Shown here: in pieces, positions 1-13,832 of the stretch
Layout of the letters: the number at the start of each line of letters is the position of its first letter
Numbering within the stretch: the stretch's first letter is position 1
IMG/VR virus record: IMGVR_UViG_3300042923_001809
Span: 1-58,820 of that record
Length of the DNA: 58,820 nucleotides
From: a virus
Direction: 5' to 3' (one strand)
Notes under the pieces: model-generated
What the model saw: the letters and a program-made list of their open reading frames with translations, nothing else
Told to the model about the DNA's origin: nothing
The model's database searches: none
Translations under genes and position numbers: made by a program

Positions 1-1761
1 ATGAATAGGAGTGGAAAAAAATGTGTACTTTACCCTCGTGTAAGTACCGAAATGCAGGTTGATGGGTTCAGCTTGGACGGGCAGAAAAACAGTTTAAAGC
101 GTTTTGCAGACAGAGAAGAAATGAAGATTGTAGATATTTACGAAGATGCTGGTAAATCCGGCAAATCCATAGAAGGCAGACCCGCTTTTAAACAAATGCT
201 GTATGATATTGAAAATGGTTTGGAAATTGAATATATCTTATTCTATAAGCTCTCCCGCTTTGGCAGAAATGCAGCCGATATTTTAAATTCTTTGGAACAC
301 GTTCAATCCTTTGGCGTAAACCTAATTTGCATTGAGGAAGGAATTGATTCTTCGCAGACAAGCGGAAAGCTTTTGATTTCAGTGCTGTCTGCTGTTGCTG
401 AAATAGAGCGTGAAAATATCATAGAGCAGACTATGAACGGGAGAAAAGAAAAAGCCCGTCAAGGTGGCTGGAACGGCGGGTTTGCTCCCTATGGTTACTA
501 CCTCAAAGATAAACAGCTATATATCCAAGAAAATGAAGCAGAAGCGATACGAATTATATTTGATAAATATGTAAATGGCAATATGGGATTTTATAAAATT
601 GCTAACTACCTTAATTTGCAGGGTATCCCAAAAATCAAACGTGCCAATGGTACTCTTTCTGGGTGGAGTACGCATTTTGTCAGAATGATAATTGACAATC
701 CCGTGTACTCTGGGAAAATCGCTTTTGGCAGACGGACAAGAGAAAAGGTCAAGGGCACTAAAAATGAATACCGCCAAGTACACCAAGATGAATACATTAT
801 TGCAGACGGTCAGCACGAGGCTATTATAAGCGAGGAACTATGGAAAAAGGCACATGAAAAGCGGGAAATAACAGGCGTAAAATCCCCATCTAAAATTGGT
901 CGAGACAGGGCGCACTTATTAAGTGGTATTTTAAAATGCCCGAAATGTGGTGGCCCGATGTACACCAACAAACATGCTTGGACAAACAAAGACGGTACAT
1001 ATAAAGAGATTTACTATTATGTATGCAGTAAGGCTCGCACTGCACGGGGAAAAAGCTGTGACTATAAAGCTATGCTCAAAAAAACCGACATTGAGCCGCT
1101 TGTCGTTGAGGAAATCAGAGAGTTGATTAATAATCAGGATTTTGCAGCAGAAATTAAATCAAGGATAGGCAAGGAAATTGATACTTTCACTTTAAACAGA
1201 GAACTCAAAAACTATGAAAATAAACTTAGAGAAGTGGAACTCAATAAAACCCGTCTTGAAAATGAAATTGACAGTCTGCCGGAAGATACTCGTTTTAGAG
1301 AACGCAAGCTCCATGATATGACCCTCCGGCTTGATGGGCTGTATGACACCATCGTAGAGCTGGAAGAAAAAATTGAGGATGTAAAGCTGCGCCGCAAAGC
1401 CGTGGAGCAAGATGCTATCACACTGGAAAATATCTACACCCTGCTGGCAAACTTTGATAAGGTATATGATAAAATCAGCGATGAAGAGAAAAAATCTCTA
1501 ATTTCTTCGCTAATCAAAGAAATAGAGATTTTCCCTTGTAACGAGGCTGAATTGCCTTTGAAGTCTATTTTATTCAATTTTCCTGTTTATAAAGACGGTG
1601 GAGATGTTTGTGGGTTTTTGTGGGACAAAAGTACGCACGTCTCAACGTGGCTCGAGAGGACAGAATTGATGTCATTAGAACCGTCCGTCCATGGAAACAT
1701 ATCCACCTGTTTTTCGATGTTTTTTGTGAAATGTCCGTTCGTGGAAACATATCGATTATAA
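1..1761 (+). CDS. Large serine recombinase (site-specific integrase)
   Basis: This is a large serine recombinase that would cut and rejoin DNA at attachment sites. The resolvase catalytic domain covers about residues 7-150, with the nucleophile Ser15 in YPRVSTEMQ. A recombinase domain follows (about 165-270), then a zinc ribbon starting CPKC near residue 314, and a coiled coil (about 395-470). The reading frame opens at the first base of the window, and this ATG fits the family's usual N-terminus. The last 40 or so residues, after WDKSTHV, do not look like the usual ending (typically ...HVETVVLLS) and contain a direct repeat. It faces the opposite way from the prophage recombinases and probably belongs to another integrated element. 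Confidence 0.9.
   Translation: MNRSGKKCVLYPRVSTEMQVDGFSLDGQKNSLKRFADREEMKIVDIYEDAGKSGKSIEGRPAFKQMLYDIENGLEIEYILFYKLSRFGRNAADILNSLEHVQSFGVNLICIEEGIDSSQTSGKLLISVLSAVAEIERENIIEQTMNGRKEKARQGGWNGGFAPYGYYLKDKQLYIQENEAEAIRIIFDKYVNGNMGFYKIANYLNLQGIPKIKRANGTLSGWSTHFVRMIIDNPVYSGKIAFGRRTREKVKGTKNEYRQVHQDEYIIADGQHEAIISEELWKKAHEKREITGVKSPSKIGRDRAHLLSGILKCPKCGGPMYTNKHAWTNKDGTYKEIYYYVCSKARTARGKSCDYKAMLKKTDIEPLVVEEIRELINNQDFAAEIKSRIGKEIDTFTLNRELKNYENKLREVELNKTRLENEIDSLPEDTRFRERKLHDMTLRLDGLYDTIVELEEKIEDVKLRRKAVEQDAITLENIYTLLANFDKVYDKISDEEKKSLISSLIKEIEIFPCNEAELPLKSILFNFPVYKDGGDVCGFLWDKSTHVSTWLERTELMSLEPSVHGNISTCFSMFFVKCPFVETYRL
1683..1753. repeat. Imperfect 21-bp direct repeat in the recombinase 3' end
   Basis: Two 21-bp copies (1683-1703 and 1733-1753) differ at two positions and share TGGAAACATATC. 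They start 50 bp apart, inside the unusual C-terminal extension of the recombinase. In the second copy the codons read FVETY, close to the HVETV that normally ends this family. The repeat may therefore come from duplication of the gene's own end or from recombination at an attachment site. The cause is inferred; the repeat is seen directly. Confidence 0.7.
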
Positions 1762-1780: not shown

Positions 1781-2875
1781 TTATGCTTGTCTTGCCTTTT
1801 TTATAAGACGCTTAATATCTATGAAATTCAGTACATTATCCATAGCATCCTGATCGAGTGAAAAACCGTATTTTTCACAAACCAAATTTGCCTTTTTTAC
1901 TAATTCCCGTATACTATTTACCAGTTTGTAATTATCTAATTTATCATTTATCTCAAGATAACAATCATCAAAAATCCCATTCAGTATATCATAATTTTTT
2001 CTTTTTGCATAATATTCTATTTTGATAATTTTCCCATTAGTCGTTAACGAAATTTGTCCAATATATTTACGCATTCCATTATCTGTTTTAGTCTTTTTAT
2101 ATATCTGTAATTCAAATATAGGTATTTCCGGTATGACTAATGGTTTCATGACTTCTGTTTTCGTCTTTTCATTAGTTATTAACCCTGCTTTAATCTTTAC
2201 TGTTTGAAGGAACTTTTTTATAAGTTCATCTCTATGTCCTTTAGAATAAGTCCACATATCCCCGTATTCACTATTAAAATCTTGATATATTTTATATATT
2301 TCATCTTTACCCACTAATACTTTATATTTTTCATACAAGTCCTTACTATCAAAAGCCCTTTCTAGAGCATTGTCTCTTTCTTTTTCAAGTTTTTCACAGA
2401 CATTATATAAATTTCTTGCAAATCCAGTAAAACTTGGCATAATGACACTACATTTTAGAGGTTTATCATTTTTACGCTTTTTATCTGACTTCAACTCTTT
2501 ATCTTCCTGCTCCCGCAGTCTTACATTAACGCAATCTATTTCAACAAATGGGCATCCTTCAATACTAGAATGATTTATAGAAATGCCATAGTGTTCAATC
2601 GCCTCTTCAGCTTCTTTTAATTGATAACTCAATATTGCATACATTTTATCATCGCCATGTAATTCTTTTCCCCTCTGATACTGAGGCAATTTTTCATCTG
2701 GGATAGTGAATGCTTCTATACTTCCTCTACAATTTATTAGTGTTTCATCAAATTCCAGACAGAATGAGTATTTTGCGTTTTTATCCAATTTCTTTATTTC
2801 TTCATTAACAGCTAATTGTATCTTTTCGTTCAATTTTTCCTCAAATAAATCTGTTCCCGGTATTGTTATTTTCAT
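1781..2875 (-). CDS. Hypothetical protein, 364 residues
   Basis: I do not recognise this protein. It is soluble and charged, with no signal peptide or membrane segment. A lysine/glutamate-rich stretch (about 115-195) may be helical. The C-terminal third looks like alternating strands and helices ending in a basic tail. The ATG at 2875 follows a good GGAGG site. The gene is divided from the TIR operon upstream by a terminator at 3006-3037, so it is probably a separate unit, although it has the same direction and similar AT-rich composition. Its stop lies 20 bp from the end of the converging recombinase. A defence or accessory role is only suggested by position. Confidence 0.75.
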   Translation of the reverse strand: MKITIPGTDLFEEKLNEKIQLAVNEEIKKLDKNAKYSFCLEFDETLINCRGSIEAFTIPDEKLPQYQRGKELHGDDKMYAILSYQLKEAEEAIEHYGISINHSSIEGCPFVEIDCVNVRLREQEDKELKSDKKRKNDKPLKCSVIMPSFTGFARNLYNVCEKLEKERDNALERAFDSKDLYEKYKVLVGKDEIYKIYQDFNSEYGDMWTYSKGHRDELIKKFLQTVKIKAGLITNEKTKTEVMKPLVIPEIPIFELQIYKKTKTDNGMRKYIGQISLTTNGKIIKIEYYAKRKNYDILNGIFDDCYLEINDKLDNYKLVNSIRELVKKANLVCEKYGFSLDQDAMDNVLNFIDIKRLIKKARQA

Positions 2876-3005
2876 ATAATCCCTCCGTATAAATATTTAC
2901 CTTTATATTGTGATCTTCATGGCATTTCACATTATTATCCATTTCTAAAATCACCATACATATTGAATAAATATTTATAGTTGGTATTAGCCCATTATCC
3001 AAAAA

Positions 3006-3037
3006 GTAAAGCCAACTGACATCCCAATTGGCTTTAC
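3006..3037 (-). terminator. Terminator of the TIR operon
   Basis: A perfect 10-bp inverted repeat, GTAAAGCCAA and TTGGCTTTAC with a 12-nt loop, is followed on the minus strand by TTTTT. It lies 18 bp past the TIR gene's stop codon and closes the three-gene operon. Confidence 0.85.
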
Positions 3038-3055
3038 TTCATATTATAAATATTT

Positions 3056-4189
3056 TCAGCTATTAATTAAATGAGATATGTAATCATACCCTTTAAGTGT
3101 AGTAACAAATATTTCACCTTTAGATCCTTTTTCCTCAATATATCCTTCCTTTAATAATTCTCTTAATGAATCCTCCCATTTAGCAACTTCACGACGTTCT
3201 TGAGATGTGATTAATTCAATCCTGCCAACGCATATAGATGTACCGTCAAAAGTAATCGTTTTTATGATAGTACCTTGTGGATCAGAACACGCAGTCTTCA
3301 AGAGAATTTGAGCATTCTCGCTTAATGTATTTTGTGTGTTTTGTTTATAAACGGCATTTATAAAGTCATTTCTATTATCTTCCCACCGAACATCATTTAT
3401 TTTCACTAATCCAAATTCTTCTATTATGTTATCTTTTAATTGTCCAAGTTTACTTTTAACATCAGTTAATTCGTTATCTAATTTCAATCCAATCTTGCGT
3501 GGATTGATTGCTCCTTTTATTTCCTTGAACTCAAAACCAGGTAATAGTATTGTTGTATATCTATTCTGTAATATCCAAGCGGCACCCATTTCATTCATAC
3601 ATGCAACGCTGTCATAATAATTATCTGATAAAATAAAAATAACATGCAAATCATGATTTTGAAACTGCAGTTTTAAGTAATCATAAATATCTTCACCAAG
3701 AGGGATATCATATCCCGTTTCAGAAGAACAAAATATTTGTTGTTCATTTAATCCAATATTTTCAAACAATCTTACTAATTTAGAAACATAACCTTTATCT
3801 AAGGATGCATGACTAATAAATATCTTTGGACTCTTTTGTTTCACTATGTGTACCTCCTCTATTTTTTGGGATGATGATATTTGCGGAGAATAATATTTGT
3901 CAATATTCTTACTAATCGCAGTCAATCCACCTGCGAGCTCATTAAAGTACCTCTCATCACTCCAACCATTAAACCTCTGATTAAGAATAACCAATATACC
4001 CCATATAAATTTGTCTTTTGTCCTATCATATATTTCTTGTAATAAAAGCTGTAGTTCCTGCTTCCAATTAGCAAATTCAGGAGTATCATATATGACATTA
4101 AGTGATGGTAAGCCTCCTCCGCCCGTAATGTGAAAATGTGATCTTATCATATCAGTTTGTTGAATTAAATCCATTAAGTCATTTTTCAT
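3056..4189 (-). CDS. TIR-domain protein with C-terminal winged-helix-like region
   Basis: The 377-residue protein has a central TIR domain (about residues 121-265) opening with KIFISHAS (FISH at 124-127) and carrying a Ser-x5-Glu motif, SVACMNEMGAAW, whose Glu200 fits the catalytic glutamate of NAD-consuming bacterial TIR enzymes. Residues 1-110 form an unrecognised N-terminal domain, probably a sensor or oligomerisation part. The last 80 residues look like a small winged helix. The ATG at 4189 was chosen over one 33 bp upstream because GAGGTGG lies just before it. Known TIR defence proteins deplete NAD+ or make signal nucleotides when phage infects. That this one does so is inferred from the motif and the operon context. 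Confidence 0.85.
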   Translation of the reverse strand: MKNDLMDLIQQTDMIRSHFHITGGGGLPSLNVIYDTPEFANWKQELQLLLQEIYDRTKDKFIWGILVILNQRFNGWSDERYFNELAGGLTAISKNIDKYYSPQISSSQKIEEVHIVKQKSPKIFISHASLDKGYVSKLVRLFENIGLNEQQIFCSSETGYDIPLGEDIYDYLKLQFQNHDLHVIFILSDNYYDSVACMNEMGAAWILQNRYTTILLPGFEFKEIKGAINPRKIGLKLDNELTDVKSKLGQLKDNIIEEFGLVKINDVRWEDNRNDFINAVYKQNTQNTLSENAQILLKTACSDPQGTIIKTITFDGTSICVGRIELITSQERREVAKWEDSLRELLKEGYIEEKGSKGEIFVTTLKGYDYISHLINS

Positions 4190-4233
4190 TTTATCCACCT
4201 CGTAATATACTAAAAATAGCAATTAAAAATATA

Positions 4234-5190
4234 TCAGAAATTATCATTTGTAAATTCTACAATATCAGCAATGAAAGCCTTTTTATCAAATAACATCTCA
4301 ACGTAATCACAATATTGTTTCAATTTTAATTTTAGATCATCTGGTTGCTTTGCTGCAAAGAGTCTGATATCTGATAAATATGATTCTACCTCATTAATGT
4401 GTTCCCACTTTTCAATATGTTTCTGAACCACTTCCTGATGTTTTATTCGTAATTCTTGTAACTTCCTTTGTTCGGCTTCTTCTTTTTCTCTTTGCCGTTG
4501 TATCTCCCACTTTCTATTTCTTTCTGCATATGCTTCATCTTCTAAACGCTTAGCTTCTCTATTTTTATTGCTGATTTCAATTAGTACAACTCGCAAGTCA
4601 ATAAAAATATCCTTAATCTGGTCTTTCAATGCATTAATATCTTCTTTATAAGTCAATTCAAAGAGTTTATCTTTGCCTTTATTAATTGAATAAATCCTAA
4701 ATTCCAACTTACCTGAATCCACCATATCATAAAACGGCTTCATTGTTTTCACATCTGTTGGCTTCAAATCCTTATACCTGCACTTTGTTTCTAACAATGA
4801 ACACTCAAGAGTACAATATGGAAATTGAATAATAGTATTGTCATTATTCCTATTTTCCACCGATATCGAACCACCAACCGCTTGTAAAGCTTCTATAAAA
4901 TAATCCATGAAAGTATAGGCTCTCGTCCTCTGCTTATCTGAAACTTCAATATTGAGAACCGGTCTACTTCCTTGATATTTTGTGTATTTTAATCTATGCT
5001 GCAACTCATATGACATATAATCTTTATACTTTTCTTTTTCATGTAAACGGCGTTTATCAATTTCTTTATTATGTTCATCGATTAAAGAATTGTAATAATT
5101 ACCTATCAGGTGAACATTCAAATGTTTACACCACTTTTCATATTCATCGTCATTTTCAATAATTACTTTTTCAATTCCGTTCTTCTTCAA
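4234..5190 (-). CDS. Coiled-coil protein of unknown function in the TIR operon
   Basis: The family is not recognised. The N-terminal two thirds contain a mixed alpha/beta region, including a stretch FPYCTLECSLLETKCRY with three cysteines. Residues about 195-265 form a long charged coiled coil rich in Arg, Glu and Gln, followed by a helical end. There is no membrane segment. The reading frame begins with a TTG inside the last 20 bp of the upstream gene, and no ATG lies nearby, so translational coupling is likely. The TIR gene starts 44 bp downstream. The coiled coil suggests a scaffold or assembly subunit for the other two products, which is inference. Confidence 0.75.
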   Translation of the reverse strand: MKKNGIEKVIIENDDEYEKWCKHLNVHLIGNYYNSLIDEHNKEIDKRRLHEKEKYKDYMSYELQHRLKYTKYQGSRPVLNIEVSDKQRTRAYTFMDYFIEALQAVGGSISVENRNNDNTIIQFPYCTLECSLLETKCRYKDLKPTDVKTMKPFYDMVDSGKLEFRIYSINKGKDKLFELTYKEDINALKDQIKDIFIDLRVVLIEISNKNREAKRLEDEAYAERNRKWEIQRQREKEEAEQRKLQELRIKHQEVVQKHIEKWEHINEVESYLSDIRLFAAKQPDDLKLKLKQYCDYVEMLFDKKAFIADIVEFTNDNF

Positions 5191-6841
5191 GGTCAGTTAC
5201 CCCACTTTCAAAATAACATCCTCCACGATAAAGTGTATCAATCAGTATTTCCAATGCATCCGAGTTCTTAACAAAATTAGGTATAAAATATCTTGTCCTA
5301 CTATCTTGAAGAACCATTGATAAGCCCGCTATAAATGTTGATAACGACGGATAATCCATGGTATTTATATATTCATGCCTTTTGTCATTTTCATATATAT
5401 AACTATTCCTTCCCCATGATCCAATATCATTAATATGAAGTCCCACAATAAAATTTCTCATGGTTGCAAGTGTGTTTACCATATCTCCAATATTAGACTT
5501 TAGTGAATTTTTACCACTACGATCTGTCAAGTCCACGGCCAGCTTTAACTGCAGCTTCATTTCTTTACATGTATTTCGCAGCCGAACAATATCTTCTACA
5601 GTAGAATATAAATAACTTTTTCCTTTATTGGATTTTGTATATCCATTTATGATGGCAATTTTCATCTTACTGTGTCTACGCATGCTTTTTTCGAATAGCT
5701 GATACTTATTAAAGAAAGCTTCCTCATTATAACCTGGTGTACTGTATGGAGATATAAATTCCAATAATTCCGGTGCTCCAAATACTTTAAAGCTTGCATG
5801 TAAATTAGATATCATAATATCCATAGCCTCTTTATCTTTCCACATAGCATCATCATTCATCTTGTCATATGTTATGCAGAGGATATAATTTGCTCCAGGA
5901 TTTTCTTTTATTATGCCGTTAGCTGTTTCAATAAATTTTATATTAGTTGTAATTTCGTTCGGATAGTCCAACCCTGAAACAAATACAGGCTTCAAAATCC
6001 TTTTTTGGCTCGCTAGATTTACTCTCTCAGTAGTGATACATAAAGTAACATATTCTGGCCAATAATCCGGATCTTTAACATCCTCAAATAGCCAATAGTA
6101 CATAATCAGCATTTCAAGTTCGCCTTTATGATCAGAAACAAACTCCCTGTGCTTATTTCTTTCGTATATGTCGTCTATATTAAAAGGATTATTTTGATAC
6201 CGATAATCATATTTGTTAATACTGTAATGCGTTTCTGTTGAACCGTCATATTCCCTTTGGATATATCTATCATAAAAACTGTATGATACGCTCTGGGCAT
6301 ATTCTAATAAATTTACATGAAAATTCCGATAAACATCCAGCACCCAGTCTATTATGAGATTATCCATTTCCTTCATACCAGATAAACTAGGCTTTTCCGT
6401 TCTTGTGCTACAATATTCCTTCGCCATCACAGATATATTGTTAAGTAACTCATCTGATGGAGTAATATTTAACTTATCTTTACATACGTATTCAGCCACT
6501 TTTCTATAATCTTCTGGCAGATAGAATAATTCACAATCTTCCATTTCTCTAAAAGCTTTCTCTACATAGCTATCTAAACGCTTTTTGCTTTCCCAATAAT
6601 ATGAGACTATAAATTCGTACGTAGTCGGATAATGCTCCATTAATCCTGCTTTAAACTTATCAACTGTCTGCTGCATTTTCATCTGCTCGTAACTATAATG
6701 TTCTAGATTTAGGTATTGATTAAAGTAATCCATTATATACTGAATTACTGCACCCATATTTTCCGAATGTTTCTTAAAATCGAACTCATCCAGCTTATCT
6801 TTCTTTTTTCTCGAAGCTATATAATCTTCTATTGATAACAC
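5171..6841 (-). CDS. Unrecognised 556-residue protein, first gene of the TIR operon
   Basis: No family is recognised. The first 250 residues are mostly helical and rich in aromatic and acidic residues. The C-terminal half has repeated strand-helix units, for example KPVFVSGLDYPNE, KMKIAIINGY, LKLAVDLTDRSGK and IVGLHINDIGSWG, which resemble strands of a TIM-barrel such as the sugar isomerase/AP-endonuclease-like group. No full catalytic signature can be assigned. The start chosen is GTG at 6841, seven bases after AGGAGG; an upstream TTG has no ribosome site. As first gene of an operon with a TIR effector it could be a sensor or a second enzyme. Confidence 0.75.
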   Translation of the reverse strand: MLSIEDYIASRKKKDKLDEFDFKKHSENMGAVIQYIMDYFNQYLNLEHYSYEQMKMQQTVDKFKAGLMEHYPTTYEFIVSYYWESKKRLDSYVEKAFREMEDCELFYLPEDYRKVAEYVCKDKLNITPSDELLNNISVMAKEYCSTRTEKPSLSGMKEMDNLIIDWVLDVYRNFHVNLLEYAQSVSYSFYDRYIQREYDGSTETHYSINKYDYRYQNNPFNIDDIYERNKHREFVSDHKGELEMLIMYYWLFEDVKDPDYWPEYVTLCITTERVNLASQKRILKPVFVSGLDYPNEITTNIKFIETANGIIKENPGANYILCITYDKMNDDAMWKDKEAMDIMISNLHASFKVFGAPELLEFISPYSTPGYNEEAFFNKYQLFEKSMRRHSKMKIAIINGYTKSNKGKSYLYSTVEDIVRLRNTCKEMKLQLKLAVDLTDRSGKNSLKSNIGDMVNTLATMRNFIVGLHINDIGSWGRNSYIYENDKRHEYINTMDYPSLSTFIAGLSMVLQDSRTRYFIPNFVKNSDALEILIDTLYRGGCYFESGVTDLEEERN

Positions 6842-6916
6842 AGGTATCCCTCCTACAAAAAACAGATTATCCAACAGGCTTCAATAAGTATTCAAGTAAC
6901 TTGTCTTATTTAGATT

Positions 6917-6946
6917 ATTATAAAACATTAGCAAGTTAAATCACAA
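6917..6946 (-). promoter_or_regulatory. Candidate promoter of the TIR operon
   Basis: On the minus strand TTGTGA (6941-6946) and a perfect TATAAT (6917-6922) are 18 bp apart, ending about 75 bp before the GTG start of the first operon gene. The -35 abuts the recombinase terminator, so the operon appears to be transcribed independently. Confidence 0.5.
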
Positions 6947-6952
6947 GAAAAA

Positions 6953-6997: not shown

Positions 6998-8572
6998 TTA
7001 CTGCTCTTGTATTTCTACATCAATCTCTACACATGATTTTAATTCAATCGTTACCTTATCTTCATACACAGTTATTTTCTCTATCAACTTTCTAACCAAC
7101 TGTTCATCATATTCTTCCATCTTGTATTCCTGTTCGCTCAGGAATTCTTCCATTATTGCAATACTCTGCCTTTTACCATGCCGTTCAGCATTGTCCGCCA
7201 GACTATTCTGCTTAAGCTCACGTAACCGGTAAATTTCATCTGCAACTGTATTATAGTCAGATTTTGATATTGCAAGCTGGAGGATTTCCTGTTGTAGTTC
7301 TTCCAGCCTTTTGTCAATTTCAGCAGTATTATTATCATATTCCTCATTCAGAGCCGTGGCAATGTTCTTCTGCAGGATTGACAAGAACTCGTCTCTGCTA
7401 CCAATGACTTTATTGATTGCCTTTATCACAGCCTTATGTAGTGTTTCTTCATTTATAGTCGGCGAAGAACAGTCTGAGCCTTTCTCCTCAAGCCTACTGA
7501 CGCACCGCCAAACAATTGATTTACAACCCCTGTTGTTCCAATGCACTCTCCGGTATATTTCTCCGCACCCACAGTAAACTATTCCTGACAAAGCGTATTT
7601 CCCACTATATATTCGTTTTTTACCAGCTTTGCCTGAATGCAGGTTTGCCCTCCGAGCTATCTCCTCTTGTACCTGCATGAAGATTTCACGCGGTATGATG
7701 GGGTCATGGTTGTTTTCTACATAGTATTGTGGAACTATACCATTGTTGGCCACACGTCTTTTGGAGAGGAAATCCACCGTATATGTCTTTTGAAGCAAGG
7801 CGTCTCCTATATATTTTTCATTCTGTAATATTTTTCTTAACGTTTCCTGTCGCCACTTACTTTTGTTTGCTGCAGTAAGTATCTCATCTGCTTCCAATCC
7901 CCTAGCAATCTGCAGCAGGCTTGCTCCTTCAAGGTATTCCAAATAAATACGCTTTACAACTTCTGCTTCCACCGGTTCAATTATAAGTCGCTTATTTTCA
8001 TCCTTGGTATACCCTAAGAAACGATTGTGATTAATCTGTATTTCACCCTGCTGATATCGGTATTGTATACCTAACTTCACATTTTGACTAAGCGACTGAC
8101 TCTCCTGTTGAGCAAGGGATGCCATGATGGTAAGCATAACCTCCCCCTTAGAGTCCATGCTATTAATATTCTCCTTTTCAAAAAACACGGGGATGTTCTT
8201 ATCTTTCAGCTGTCGTATGTATTTAAGACAATCCAAGGTATTTCTTGCAAAACGGCTAATTGACTTAGTTATTATCATGTCAATTTTACCTGACATACAG
8301 TCTTCAATCATACGGTTGAATTCATCACGTTTCTTGGTATTGGTTCCTGAAATACCGTCATCCGCATAGATACCCGCAAGTTCCCATTCTTGGTTTCCTT
8401 GAATATAGTTTGTATAATGTTCTATCTGAACTTCATAACTGGTAGCCTGCTCTTCACTATCTGTAGAAACGCGGCAGTAGGCTGCTACCCTAAGTTTAGG
8501 CTTTTCTTCCATTTGAATATTGTTGCCAACACGAATTCGTGCCGGTATAACTCTAACACTTTTACTCTGCAT
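6998..8572 (-). CDS. Large serine recombinase (prophage integration module, third gene)
   Basis: A complete large serine recombinase of 524 residues. The resolvase domain has the nucleophile Ser36 in [10 protein letters not shown] and the FARN motif. A recombinase domain and a zinc ribbon (CGCGEIYRR, with a later pair of cysteines) follow, then a coiled coil. The ATG at 8572 lies after GAGGTGG and overlaps the end of the upstream gene by 11 bp, so the two are translationally coupled. With the 8991-10553 recombinase it probably forms the integrase/excisionase machinery of the prophage; paired recombinases of this type are common in clostridial prophages and conjugative elements. Confidence 0.9.
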
Positions 8573-8990
8573 CCTCTGCCACCTCACATACTATCAAACT
8601 AAAAGCATACTCCGCTTGCATATAAGGATTTTCATACAATTGTTTAGGAACAGGCATTTTGAAACATATTTTAGTTGCTACTCCCCTCATATCATCAGAT
8701 TCCCTTATTCTGCCCAGCATCTTTGCACGCCTCATCCTTTCATCTTCAGTCTTATGAAAAGTATCCTCATCTATCAGCGGAGGATAGAAGCCGTCACCAT
8801 AGTATCGTCTATTTCTCAACATTTTACCTATGGAAGGGTGCGGTTTACATATTCCCGTTTCTTTAGCAACCTCAGCCAAAGAAAGTCCTGAGAGATAAAA
8901 ATTGAACATTTTCTTAATCTGCTCTGCTTCTTTCTCAATGATCATTGCTTTTCCATTCTTAATCTCATAACCAAATGGAGTATGACTCAC
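8562..8990 (-). CDS. Short recombinase-domain protein lacking the catalytic domain
   Basis: The 142-residue product matches only the recombinase (DNA-binding) domain of large serine recombinases: [11 protein letters not shown], the [17 protein letters not shown] stretch, and a following helical region. There is no resolvase domain and no Ser nucleophile. Its GTG start follows directly on the stop codon of the upstream recombinase, and its end overlaps the next one by 11 bp. The tight packing suggests a real accessory subunit, not debris. A role as a directionality or DNA-binding partner is inferred. Confidence 0.75.
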
Positions 8991-10553
8991 TTACCGCACC
9001 AACCTTTCTTTTAATGTAATATTACATTTCATTTTAAATCCAATCTCTTCCTGAGAGTGAACGATAATTTTATCAACAAAGCGTTCAAAGATCTCTTCAT
9101 CAAAGTGATTAATATAGGCAGCTTTTGAAGTCCATTTGAGAAGCTGTTCCACTTCCGTAAGAACTGTCATTTCTCCGTTTATGGAATGTGATAAAGCTTT
9201 TTTCTGCTCCATAAGCGTGGCAGCTTCTTTTTTTAGCTCATTACTCTGTGAAACAAACAATGTCTGCTCAAGATATCCTTTGGCCATGAGTGTTGTCAGA
9301 ATGCGGTTACGTTCCAAATTTTCCTCCAGCTTTACTTCCAATTCCTGTATTTGCACTACATTCTCCAAATAGTCTGTTTCTTTTAGGCTCTGCAAAAGTG
9401 GTTTCAAAATGTTTTTATGGCCGTAAATTAGCTTGTTTATCATAATGACGAATGCCCTGTGAATGTCTTCTTCCCGTATAAACTTCATGGAACATTGACA
9501 AATATCCTCAATATGCTTTGAACAGCACCATGCTGCATATTCACTTTTACTGCTGCTATAATGGATCCTGCGTTTAAAAGAGCTGCCACATTCAGAACAT
9601 ATTATCTTTCCTGACAAAGAATAGCGCTTCTGATATTTATTACTTCCCTTCTCTATGTTTTTCTCTTCTCTGCGCTGATTTAACATTTTTTTTACCGTCT
9701 GGAATATCTCATGGCTTATGATTGCTTCATGGTTATTCTTGACTAGGTACTGCTCCTTTTCCCCATGGTTTCTGTGCCGTTTGAAATTCTCATCAGTATA
9801 TTTTTTTTGATATAGTGCATCCCCAACATACTTCTCATTGGTTAGAATACCGTTAATCGTACTAGCATTCCATTGTTTTCCTTTTCTTGGTGGTATGCTT
9901 TCTGCATTCAGATCTTTGGCTATTTTTGCTGTTCCTTTTCCTTCAAGCATTTCAGAAAACATACGTTTTACAATCGTTGCCTGCTCCTCATTTACCACCA
10001 TGCAGCCATTTTTATTTTCATAACCATACGGTGGACAGGACATTTTATATGTCCCATTCTGGAACCGCTTCTGGATCGACCATTTATTGTTACTAGATAT
10101 CGAAACGGATTCATTCTCCGCCAGGCTGCTTAGGATAGTCAGCATTAATTCTCCATCCATTGATTTGGTATTGATGTTTTCCTTTTCAAAATAAATGAAT
10201 ATACCAAGATTAGTCAACTTGCGTACCAGTTCGAGACAATCCATTGTATTTCTTGCAAAACGGCTTATGGACTTTGTTATAATTAAATCAATCTTCCTGC
10301 TTTCACAATCAGATATCAGCCTAGTCAGTTCCGCACGCTTTTCTTTCTTCGTACCCGTTATTCCCTCATCATAATAAATCCCTACATACTCCCAGTCTGA
10401 ATTTGCTTTTATGTAAGTTTCGTAATGATCTCTCTGCGCTTTTAGGCTGATCAATTGTTCATCTGAATCCGTGGAAACACGGCAATAAGCTGCAACCCTA
10501 AGCTTTGGTTTTAGCATGATGGGGTCAGTTGATATTTTCCTTACTATTCTCAC
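8991..10553 (-). CDS. Large serine recombinase (prophage integration module, first recombinase)
   Basis: The 520-residue protein has an N-terminal resolvase domain with Ser27 in [10 protein letters not shown], a recombinase domain with PPYGYENKNG, a zinc ribbon (CSECGSSFKRR and a later Cys pair) and a C-terminal coiled coil. The start is GTG at 10553, eight or so bases after AGGGAGG. It is the first of three overlapping or abutting recombinase genes and lies after the small SHOCT gene. The N-terminal domains of this protein and the 6998-8572 product are clearly related, but the C-terminal parts differ, which would suit a heteromeric recombinase or two different functions. Confidence 0.9.
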   Translation of the reverse strand: MRIVRKISTDPIMLKPKLRVAAYCRVSTDSDEQLISLKAQRDHYETYIKANSDWEYVGIYYDEGITGTKKEKRAELTRLISDCESRKIDLIITKSISRFARNTMDCLELVRKLTNLGIFIYFEKENINTKSMDGELMLTILSSLAENESVSISSNNKWSIQKRFQNGTYKMSCPPYGYENKNGCMVVNEEQATIVKRMFSEMLEGKGTAKIAKDLNAESIPPRKGKQWNASTINGILTNEKYVGDALYQKKYTDENFKRHRNHGEKEQYLVKNNHEAIISHEIFQTVKKMLNQRREEKNIEKGSNKYQKRYSLSGKIICSECGSSFKRRIHYSSSKSEYAAWCCSKHIEDICQCSMKFIREEDIHRAFVIMINKLIYGHKNILKPLLQSLKETDYLENVVQIQELEVKLEENLERNRILTTLMAKGYLEQTLFVSQSNELKKEAATLMEQKKALSHSINGEMTVLTEVEQLLKWTSKAAYINHFDEEIFERFVDKIIVHSQEEIGFKMKCNITLKERLVR

Positions 10554-10836: not shown

Positions 10837-11075
10837 ATTAGAACCTCCATTCCTTTTCTTCACTGGATAGCCATGGGAGGAAATGGATGTGAGGTTTTTG
10901 CTAAAATAGTAACTAAATAATTAATTGAAGGTCGAATTAAAAATAATATGGTAAAATTATGTAACGTGGTTTATAATATTTTACAAATGAGTTCTTATTA
11001 AAAAACAAAGAATCAAATGAATGTAAAGGCTAGTATGATTTTTTGGCTACATATTATAGAAAGGCGGAGAGACAA

Positions 11076-13832
11076 ATGACAAATATTGCGAAGGATCCAG
11101 TGGTAGTTGTTACAATTTCTAAAATAGATAGGCAGATTTTGAATATTGATAAAGTTATCTGCCGTCACATAGACAACCTCGGTGTTTCGACACGAGGTGT
11201 TATTTCGCAGGACATTCTATCTCAACTGCGTAACTTTGTAGAGCATATAATGTTGAAATTCTATGCCAACGGCCGAGACATCGAAAACAGTTATGAAAAC
11301 ATCTGTAAAGCAATTGTTTTCGTTAAATCACGGGGTGATTTAAAAGTGCTATTACGGTTTCACGATTATTTACAAATTGTGGCTTCGCATTATACGCTTG
11401 ATGAGGAAAATTCTGAACGGTTAATGCTAAAATATTATGAATACCTTTTGAAAATTAAAAACCTATTATACGAGAGGTATTCTATAAAAGTCCTTGGTAA
11501 CCTCGATAAGTTCCCTCTGAGTACTGATTCCAACTTACAGGAGTACTATGAAAAGATTGCCAATAAAATAAAACGGTATAATAAACAGGGTGTTGGAAAA
11601 GCTGAGAAATATTATATTCAAAAGATTAAGCCATTCTTTGTCAATCAACGAATTTATTATGAAGTGACTTTCACACCCGCAAATGATTATGCGAGCAAAT
11701 TTAATCGAGTTATCGCATTCACAAGTTTGGAAATAACAGACAATTATGCTGTTAAATTTGCCTTAACTCGTGATAGCATTGAAATCCTTGGCAAGACTAT
11801 GCCTATTATTGTAATTGTGGATTGGGAAGTGGCAATTCGAGATTGCGAGTTTAAGAATTTCACAAGTATTATAAGAGGTAAAGCCGTTACAACGGGATAC
11901 ACCGAACAACAAGGTATCTCGCAGTTTCTAACTTCAACAGGATTTAATTTAACAGAACTCATTGATTTCTCTGATAGTGAATTTCAAAAGGTTAAGCAAA
12001 AAGTGACAGAACGAGCTAAGGTAATTGTGTTTTTTAATGACCTAGAGCGTTGTCGTGCTTTAATGAGAGTTAATGGTGCTGGTAGTAATCTCCTACGGTA
12101 TTTGCTTTACCATATGAATAATAAAGTTATTAAGAACCAGCAGCAAAATTATGCGAACGATAATTTATCTGGGCTTTATGTAAAAAATGGTTGTATCCCA
12201 TTCGATAGTATGCCCTTTAATTCCTCGCCAATAGAACATAACCCGAGACTTGGCGATTTGTTCGCTTGTATTGATGCCACTGATCGACAACACGAAATTC
12301 TTGCCCGATTGGTTAGGAACAACACCGAAATAAAAGGACAACTTTTTACGCCTATAAAAGATATTGTTGGGTTTGGAGATATAGACCCACTTATAAGGAC
12401 CTATAACAAAGCTCTATGGTATGGACATCGAGAAAACAGTAAATTAGTGATTGAAAACAACCATATCTTCATTAACGGCTATAAAAATGATACCTGTTAC
12501 ATTATTACTGAATTTAATAAATTAGTAAAAAACGGAGTCCAGAACTATTCAAACTCGGTTAAAGCGTGGTTGAGTGAACCTAACAATGGTGTTGATTGTG
12601 AAGAGAAAAAAGTGGCCTTAACCCATATGTTCGAAAACTCTAGAGTTGCTTTAGTATATGGCTCAGCTGGCACAGGAAAGTCTACGCTCATAAATCACAT
12701 TTCACATTTCTTTGCGGATAAGAAAAAATTATTTTTAGCACAAACCAACCCCGCTGTAGAAAATATGAAACGACGAGTGACAGCTTCAAACTGCACTTTT
12801 TCAACGATTACAAAGTTTCTAAAAAGAAAAAATGTCATTACTGAATATGACCTAGTTATCATAGACGAGTGCAGTACTGTGAACAATCGTGATATGAGAG
12901 ATATTCTTATCAAAGCTACATATACATTGTTGGTTTTAGTAGGCGATTCATATCAAATAGCCTCCATCCGGTTTGGCAACTGGTTTAGCGTTGCTCGTGC
13001 ATTTGTTCCCCAAACGTCAGTGTTTGATTTAACTAAGCCTTATCGGAGTAGCAAAGCAGGTTTACTTACATTATGGGACAGAGTACGAAAGATGGATGAT
13101 ACCATTCTTGAACTTATTACAAGACAAGGATATTCCTCCAGATTGGATGATTCCATTTTTTCATCTGCTTCTGCAGATGAAATTATTCTTTGTCTTAACT
13201 ATGATGGGCTATATGGAATTAACAACATTAATCGTTTCTTGCAAGAGAGCAATCCAAATTTAGCCGTCCACTGGGGAATTCAACAGTATAAGGTTAATGA
13301 TCCAATTTTATTTAATGAATCCGACCGTTTCGCACCAGTTATTTACAATAATATGAAAGGACGCATTGTAAGGATAACAATTCTTGATAGTGAAAAACCT
13401 ACTGAGCGCATACAGTTTGATATAGAACTTGATAAGGTAATCAATGGAATAGATGCCCTAGGTCAAGATTTCGAACTACTAGATAGTACTCAGAGAGGAA
13501 ACTCAGTTGTTCGTTTTTGTGTCAACAAACTAAAAAATGCCGATGAAGATGATGATGGTGCTTCAAAGGCAACTGTTCCGTTTCAAGTTGCCTATGCTGT
13601 TTCTATTCATAAAGCGCAAGGTCTAGAATACAACTCTGTCAAAATCGTAATAACAGACGAAATCGACGAGTTAATCACACACAATATCTTTTATACGGCT
13701 ATTACGCGAGCGCGGGAAAAACTAAACATTTATTGGACCCCTGAGGTTGAACAGAAAGTTCTGAGCAGTATTAAGCCACAAAACAATGGAAAAGACGTGG
13801 CTTTACTAAGGAGTTACATCCAAAAGCAATGA
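11076..13832 (+). CDS. RecD-like superfamily 1 helicase with a large unknown N-terminal region
   Basis: The C-terminal half of this 918-residue protein is an SF1 helicase of RecD/UvrD_C2 type: Walker A GSAGTGKST near residue 529, Walker B VIIDECS near 594, GDSYQIASI motif III, and C-terminal VSIHKAQGLEY and TAITRARE motifs. The first 500 residues have no recognised domain. The ATG at 11076 follows GGCGGAG; an upstream in-frame TTG has no site. The gene reads against the prophage and is followed by a small gene in the same direction, so it looks like cargo between the lysis and integration modules. DNA-targeting phage defence is a reasonable but unproven guess. Confidence 0.85.
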   Translation: MTNIAKDPVVVVTISKIDRQILNIDKVICRHIDNLGVSTRGVISQDILSQLRNFVEHIMLKFYANGRDIENSYENICKAIVFVKSRGDLKVLLRFHDYLQIVASHYTLDEENSERLMLKYYEYLLKIKNLLYERYSIKVLGNLDKFPLSTDSNLQEYYEKIANKIKRYNKQGVGKAEKYYIQKIKPFFVNQRIYYEVTFTPANDYASKFNRVIAFTSLEITDNYAVKFALTRDSIEILGKTMPIIVIVDWEVAIRDCEFKNFTSIIRGKAVTTGYTEQQGISQFLTSTGFNLTELIDFSDSEFQKVKQKVTERAKVIVFFNDLERCRALMRVNGAGSNLLRYLLYHMNNKVIKNQQQNYANDNLSGLYVKNGCIPFDSMPFNSSPIEHNPRLGDLFACIDATDRQHEILARLVRNNTEIKGQLFTPIKDIVGFGDIDPLIRTYNKALWYGHRENSKLVIENNHIFINGYKNDTCYIITEFNKLVKNGVQNYSNSVKAWLSEPNNGVDCEEKKVALTHMFENSRVALVYGSAGTGKSTLINHISHFFADKKKLFLAQTNPAVENMKRRVTASNCTFSTITKFLKRKNVITEYDLVIIDECSTVNNRDMRDILIKATYTLLVLVGDSYQIASIRFGNWFSVARAFVPQTSVFDLTKPYRSSKAGLLTLWDRVRKMDDTILELITRQGYSSRLDDSIFSSASADEIILCLNYDGLYGINNINRFLQESNPNLAVHWGIQQYKVNDPILFNESDRFAPVIYNNMKGRIVRITILDSEKPTERIQFDIELDKVINGIDALGQDFELLDSTQRGNSVVRFCVNKLKNADEDDDGASKATVPFQVAYAVSIHKAQGLEYNSVKIVITDEIDELITHNIFYTAITRAREKLNIYWTPEVEQKVLSSIKPQNNGKDVALLRSYIQKQ

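What the first reader, a model, noticed from the sequence alone, without database searches (positions are those of the whole stretch)
2996..6950. Self-contained three-gene TIR operon: candidate undescribed defence system
One promoter (6917-6946), one terminator (3006-3037), and three coupled or closely spaced genes: a 556-residue protein with TIM-barrel-like strand patterns, a coiled-coil protein overlapping it by 20 bp, and a TIR protein with a FISH motif and a Glu fitting NADase TIRs. TIR enzymes are known phage-defence effectors, but I know no system with these two partners. The two unknown proteins could sense infection and activate TIR.
Basis: partly seen in the sequence, partly recalled or inferred. 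Interest (0 to 1): 0.85.

Follow-up and report, generated by a model that had tools for sequence, protein, structure and literature searches.

The report
TIR gene stacked on defence-island pair
A prophage carries a conserved pair of uncharacterised genes that keeps turning up beside bacterial anti-phage systems, and here a probable NAD-destroying suicide gene of the known SpbK type sits behind it, so the three genes look like stacked defence cargo rather than one new three-part machine.

Summary
The operon is real: A (556 aa), B (318 aa, overlapping A by 20 bp) and a TIR gene, with a conserved promoter and a strong terminator. It is low-GC cargo (0.31-0.33) in a 0.43 GC prophage.

The TIR protein is a SpbK-family NADase candidate (PADLOC spbK 2e-75; PDB SpbK 4e-28). 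It keeps the catalytic Glu and CC-interface residues, but its N-terminal domain is unmatched and it has an extra C-terminal domain. Its homologues live without A-B, several inside known defence operons (BREX, type I and type III restriction-modification).

A and B are a conserved unit of their own: at 11 of 11 further loci B lies directly behind A, none with an intact TIR gene. Neighbours there include Lamassu, Gabija and an McrB-like ATPase. A has a predicted xylose-isomerase/EndoIV-like TIM barrel with invariant E361, N399, D437, H469, R517. B is an HTH/coiled-coil family. A third companion, C, lies just past the terminator.

A-B-TIR linkage was seen only in this phage and, as relics, in [Clostridium] fimetarium, where A-B outlived TIR. 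Best reading: an uncharacterised A-B(-C) candidate defence cassette plus an independent SpbK-type abortive-infection gene. All function is inferred.

The parts
5171..6841 (-). A: 556-aa protein, helical N-terminal half plus predicted xylose-isomerase/EndoIV-like TIM barrel (about 281-545)
   Evidence: invariant E361 N399 D437 H469 R517
4234..5190 (-). B: 318-aa partner, mixed alpha/beta domain plus 93-residue helix; longer relatives carry an N-terminal HTH
   Evidence: adjacent to A at 11 of 11 other loci
3056..4189 (-). TIR: 377-aa SpbK-family TIR protein, probable NADase, catalytic Glu200
1781..2875 (-). C: 364-aa companion of unknown function, behind the terminator here, directly behind A-B in L006 and L019
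6917..6946 (-). promoter TTGTGA-18-TATAAT of A-B-TIR
   Evidence: both hexamers conserved in two C. fimetarium copies
3006..3037 (-). intrinsic terminator behind TIR
   Evidence: 17-bp stem, z -7.4

Best explanation
The operon is a stack of two defence modules in the integrase-end cargo region of a prophage. Module 1 is the A-B pair, in some phages with C: B probably binds nucleic acid or a phage factor through its HTH/coiled-coil parts, and A probably does chemistry in a xylose-isomerase-like barrel. Module 2 is an SpbK-type TIR NADase that senses a phage product through its own N-terminal domain, clusters and destroys NAD+ as a last resort. One promoter co-expresses them, as TIR genes of this family lie inside BREX and restriction-modification operons elsewhere. 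Shown by sequence or model: TIR family and residues, A-B conservation, barrel fold prediction, defence neighbours, modular exchange. Inferred: NADase activity, that A-B defends at all, what each part senses, any cooperation.
For: TIR matches SpbK from linker through TIR domain with E192/N191/G194/W197 conserved. Full-length TIR homologues (82%, 61%, about 40%) lack A-B nearby; relatives lie inside BREX (L079, L080, L113), type I R-M (L106, L109) and type III R-M (L112) operons. A-B is an invariant pair at 11 other loci without an intact TIR, beside Lamassu and Gabija and an McrB-like ATPase. A barrel-only relative precedes a DUF499/DUF3780/DUF1156 anti-phage operon. In C. fimetarium A-B is kept while TIR is destroyed. 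Low GC of the whole block.
Against: No function was tested. The A-B-TIR order is older than this phage (at least four C. fimetarium relic copies), which could mean a real functional link. The TIR N-terminal domain does not match the SpbK portal-binding domain by sequence, so an independent sensor is an assumption. Defence-island proximity is circumstantial, and several A-B loci have no recognised defence neighbour.
Confidence: 0.55

Rival explanations
1. A true three-gene system: A and B sense infection, for example by the barrel making or clearing a small molecule, and activate the TIR NADase.
For: One conserved promoter and one terminator enclose exactly these three genes. The A-B-TIR order recurs as relics in C. 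fimetarium.
Against: No intact TIR at 11 other A-B loci and no A-B at any TIR locus outside C. fimetarium. C. fimetarium kept A-B after losing TIR. SpbK is activated by a phage portal protein alone (PMC12847820).
Confidence: 0.2
2. A-B(-C) is prophage cargo with no defence role, for example lysogenic-conversion or regulatory genes, and TIR is an unrelated defence gene that landed next to it.
For: No family match gives A, B or C a defence function. C and B-type proteins also occur alone or together without A and outside recognised defence loci.
Against: Repeated placement of A-B or A's barrel next to Lamassu, Gabija, an McrB-like ATPase and a DUF499 system in unrelated hosts.
Confidence: 0.2
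3. TIR is a guard of A-B: it kills the cell only when a phage inactivates A or B, as PrrC guards a type I restriction enzyme.
For: Relatives of this TIR sit between hsdS and hsdR and within BREX operons, the placement expected of a guard (the PrrC analogy is from my own knowledge).
Against: Full-length TIR homologues also occur with no shared partner; SpbK answers to a phage trigger alone (PMC12847820).
Confidence: 0.05

Closest known systems
SpbK (B. subtilis ICEBs1; TIR NADase activated by phage portal protein YonE; PMC12847820, PMC11984713)
   Same: TIR domain and linker homologous (E 4e-28); catalytic Glu and the three CC-interface residues conserved; encoded on a mobile element; homologues occur without A-B
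   Different: N-terminal domain not matched by sequence; about 95 extra C-terminal residues shared with DUF4062 proteins; BB-loop D158 is Gly; here co-transcribed with A-B
Xylose-isomerase-like / AP-endonuclease-2 (EndoIV, D-tagatose 3-epimerase) TIM barrels
   Same: Predicted fold of A's C-terminal half (Foldseek E 1.7e-4 to 1e-3, target TM about 0.4-0.56); conserved acidic, His and Asn residues at the ends of barrel strands
   Different: About 12% identity; no sequence-profile match to Pfam or PDB; pocket is E/N/D/H/R, and the usual metal-ligand set was not shown; extra helical N-terminal half and an obligate partner B
DUF499-centred BREX-related type-2 system (DUF499/DUF3780/N6-methyltransferase; PMC12839542)
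   Same: A barrel-only relative of A lies just upstream of such an operon in L072 and keeps E, N, D, H, R
   Different: No DUF499, DUF3780 or DUF1156 gene lies near A-B in the window
Thoeris (ThsA + TIR ThsB)
   Same: Both use a TIR protein in phage defence
   Different: Only a weak ThsB match (1.7e-4) and no ThsA-type partner in the operon

Membership tests
SpbK | TIR domain of the SpbK type with catalytic Glu | tested here: met
   PADLOC spbK 2.2e-75, PDB 9phb 4.4e-28; E192 = E200
SpbK | CC-interface residues N191, G194, W197 needed for assembly and defence | tested here: met
   N199, G202, W205 here, invariant or nearly so in five homologues
SpbK | BB-loop D158 of the BE interface | tested here: not met
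   Gly at the aligned position; other interface contacts were not modelled
SpbK | N-terminal four-helix portal-binding domain | tested here: inconclusive
   No sequence match over the first 100 residues; no structure was predicted for the TIR protein
SpbK | Works as a single gene | tested here: inconclusive
   Homologues occur without A-B, but function was not tested
SpbK | Activation by a phage portal protein; NAD+ cleavage | not testable with these tools
   needs experiment
Thoeris | ThsA-type partner (SIR2 or other NAD/SLOG effector) beside the TIR gene | tested here: not met
   A, B and C have no such domain
Xylose-isomerase-like / EndoIV barrel superfamily | TIM-barrel fold of this type | tested here: met
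   AlphaFold2 model and Foldseek; moderate confidence, mean pLDDT 71, eight-sequence alignment
Xylose-isomerase-like / EndoIV barrel superfamily | Canonical metal-binding residues | tested here: inconclusive
   Invariant E361, N399, D437, H469, R517; geometry was not measured
Dedicated A-B-TIR three-gene system | Co-occurrence of all three genes across divergent hosts | tested here: not met
   Only this phage, and C. fimetarium with TIR relics

The most novel reading that the evidence does not exclude
A-B (with C in some phages) is an undescribed anti-phage system in which a xylose-isomerase-like TIM-barrel enzyme works with an HTH/coiled-coil partner, and SpbK-type TIR genes are plug-in last-resort modules that insert into such operons as they do into BREX and restriction-modification operons.
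Probability: 0.4. Interest if true: 0.7.

Novelty: new variant of a known kind. Interest (0 to 1): 0.5.

Why it matters
If A-B defends, it would bring an enzyme fold (a xylose-isomerase/EndoIV-type barrel) that I do not know from phage defence, in a compact two-gene unit that is easy to test. The recurrent placement of SpbK-type TIR genes inside BREX and restriction-modification operons suggests that abortive-infection NADases are added onto first-line systems as backups. A 2026 survey of BREX auxiliary and backup effectors (PMC12839542) has no occurrence of the word TIR.

Tried and rejected
Housekeeping identity for A or B: no Pfam, NCBIfam, PHROG or PADLOC family and no PDB sequence match; the Pfam BpsA_C hit for A (0.0043, below its cut-off) was set aside. 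B's predicted fold has no PDB match. A viral-structure search with A adds mainly AP-endonuclease-like barrels. A single-sequence TIR search of IMG/VR gave two spurious 18-residue matches (L021, L022); the alignment search worked. A-B as a self-mobile element in C. fimetarium: only two 5' ends and about four 3' ends, mostly deletion relics, so phage remnants or duplications are likelier. The DUF4062 gene upstream of A-B in Cohnella as a stand-in for TIR: no significant match to the window TIR. Literature searches for TIR genes inside BREX or type I operons found nothing on point, but the library is partial.

Full report
The window is a 58.8-kb virus record: a tailed prophage with terminase, portal and major head protein at 29.8-34.6 kb and an endolysin at 14.4 kb. 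Between serine recombinases at 6998-10553 and another at 1-1761 lies a block of four - strand genes: A (6841-5171), B (5190-4234), TIR (4189-3056) and C (2875-1781). Their GC is 0.33, 0.31, 0.31 and 0.30, against 0.40 for the recombinases and 0.43 for the phage body. The block is foreign cargo at the integrase end of the prophage.

A starts at a GTG (556 aa); the same codon is ATG in C. fimetarium behind the same AGGAGGGA. B overlaps A by 20 bp. The promoter hexamers at 6946-6917 are conserved in both C. fimetarium copies, although the number of promoter-like sites is not above chance. The terminator behind TIR is strong (z -7.4). C lies beyond it.

TIR. It matches PADLOC spbK (2.2e-75) and the solved SpbK 9phb (4.4e-28) from the linker through the TIR domain. 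SpbK E192, N191, G194 and W197 (PMC12847820) correspond to E200, N199, G202 and W205 and are kept in five homologues. Differences: SpbK D158 is Gly, S121 Ala and Y188 Ala here (my reading of the alignment). The N-terminal 100 residues do not match SpbK's portal-binding domain by sequence, and there is an extra C-terminal domain shared with DUF4062 proteins. NADase activity is likely; the trigger is unknown.

TIR does not need A-B. In 397 Lachnospiraceae genomes the TIR protein has matches in 26, many of them to the TIR domain only. The closest is 82% identical over its length (L077) and lies between a PD-T4-1/HNH-type gene and a 357-aa gene. Apart from C. fimetarium, none of the TIR loci has A or B within the DNA examined. 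Several lie inside known defence operons: pglX-TIR-pglZ (L079), directly behind brxL (L080), pglZ-TIR-brxL (L113), hsdS-TIR-hsdR (L109, and L106 where the TIR gene is split) and beside type III mod/res (L112). A 2026 survey of BREX auxiliary genes has no occurrence of TIR (PMC12839542). I found no paper describing this placement, but the library is partial.

A-B does not need TIR. Relatives of A were found in C. fimetarium (two copies), a Cohnella plasmid, five IMG/VR phage contigs (one matching GenBank phage PV036453) and three further Bacillota genomes. At all eleven loci B follows A directly. A scan with B alone returned exactly the five phage contigs that carry A. Across 398 Bacillota genomes the B family is wider: 15 genomes, of which four carry long A. 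None of the eleven loci has an intact TIR gene. C. fimetarium is the telling case: L001 keeps about nine TIR codons in front of a pirin gene and L002 keeps a TIR fragment from residue 13, each behind an intact B and an A that runs open to the contig edge; two more loci (L082, L083) keep B and TIR fragments. The order A-B-TIR is thus older than this phage, but TIR was lost while A-B stayed.

What A-B might be. AlphaFold2 gives A an alpha/beta barrel at about 281-545, mostly above 75 pLDDT, and a less certain helical N-terminal half (mean 71, eight sequences). Foldseek groups it with tagatose-epimerase, EndoIV and rhamnose/xylose isomerase structures (E from 1.7e-4). E361, N399, D437, H469 and R517 are invariant in all family members aligned, including a barrel-only relative upstream of a DUF499/DUF3780/DUF1156 anti-phage operon (L072). 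That suggests a working pocket; its geometry was not measured. Relatives of the N-terminal half alone (about 280 aa) occur in other Bacillota (L070, L071, L073-L076). B has a mixed domain and a 93-residue helix (mean pLDDT 77) without a PDB match; its longer relatives add an HTH region with a PPxGYW motif (HTH by my reading of the sequence). C follows A-B in L006 and L019, precedes A in L007, and in a genome without A lies behind a B-type protein (L147).

Neighbourhood. A-B sits directly before LmuA/LmuB (L067) and downstream of GajA/GajB (L005) and near an McrB-like ATPase (L003). With the barrel-only relative in L072 this is repeated placement among anti-phage genes in unrelated hosts. It supports, but does not prove, a defence role.

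Mechanism. Most likely the operon stacks a first-line module (A-B, maybe C) and a last-resort NADase (TIR) under one promoter. Known from sequence or model: TIR family and residues, the A-B unit, the predicted barrel, modular exchange. Inferred: that TIR senses a phage product by its N-terminal domain, that A acts on a nucleic-acid or sugar/nucleotide-like substrate, and that the layers back each other up. The three-gene sensor-activator model remains possible (about 0.2) but has no comparative support outside one clade.

Verdict. One undescribed three-gene TIR system is not supported. The more interesting remainder is the A-B cassette and the habit of SpbK-type TIR genes of sitting inside defence operons.

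Noticed in passing
L079, L080, L113, L106, L109, L112: SpbK-family TIR genes lie inside BREX operons, between hsdS and hsdR of type I, and beside mod/res of type III restriction-modification operons in Lachnospiraceae. This looks like a general habit and may be undescribed.
   Followed up: partly
L072:536-1414: A barrel-only relative of A (292 aa) precedes a DUF499/DUF3780/DUF1156 anti-phage operon and keeps the five invariant pocket residues.
   Followed up: partly
window 1638-1759; L077:5240-5361; L002:2598-2629: A 122-bp sequence at the 3' end of the serine recombinase gene recurs (78%) near the TIR gene of L077, and a 32-bp piece of it lies beside the TIR relic of L002. It could be an attachment site or an insertion-element end; unexplained.
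   Followed up: partly
L070, L071, L073-L076: About 250-290 aa proteins matching only the helical N-terminal half of A occur without B in other Bacillota, so that half is a separable module.
   Followed up: no
L014:1489-2355 and L014:3528-3842: An A N-terminal relative lies between serine recombinases, near the 3' end of an RlmD/RumA-like methyltransferase gene (VETVVLLSR), a possible phage insertion site.
   Followed up: no
L147:4965-7857: A B-type HTH protein (479 aa) and an intact C (364 aa) lie side by side in a Bacillota genome with no A match, so B-type and C also pair without A.
   Followed up: partly
L068:3373-4794 and L017:304-1239: A related protein of unknown family (27% identity) sits beside A-B in one genome and beside a broken A relative in another; it resembles a RES-type protein to the eye but has no Pfam match.
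   Followed up: partly
window TIR residues 278-368; L119:6070-7200; L120:6360-7481: The C-terminal domain of the TIR protein is shared with DUF4062-like proteins (E about 1e-9), so the two protein types exchange a domain.
   Followed up: partly
window 11043-13832 (+): A 929-aa Dda/RecD-like helicase gene on the opposite strand lies between the endolysin and the recombinases; its role was not examined.
   Followed up: no
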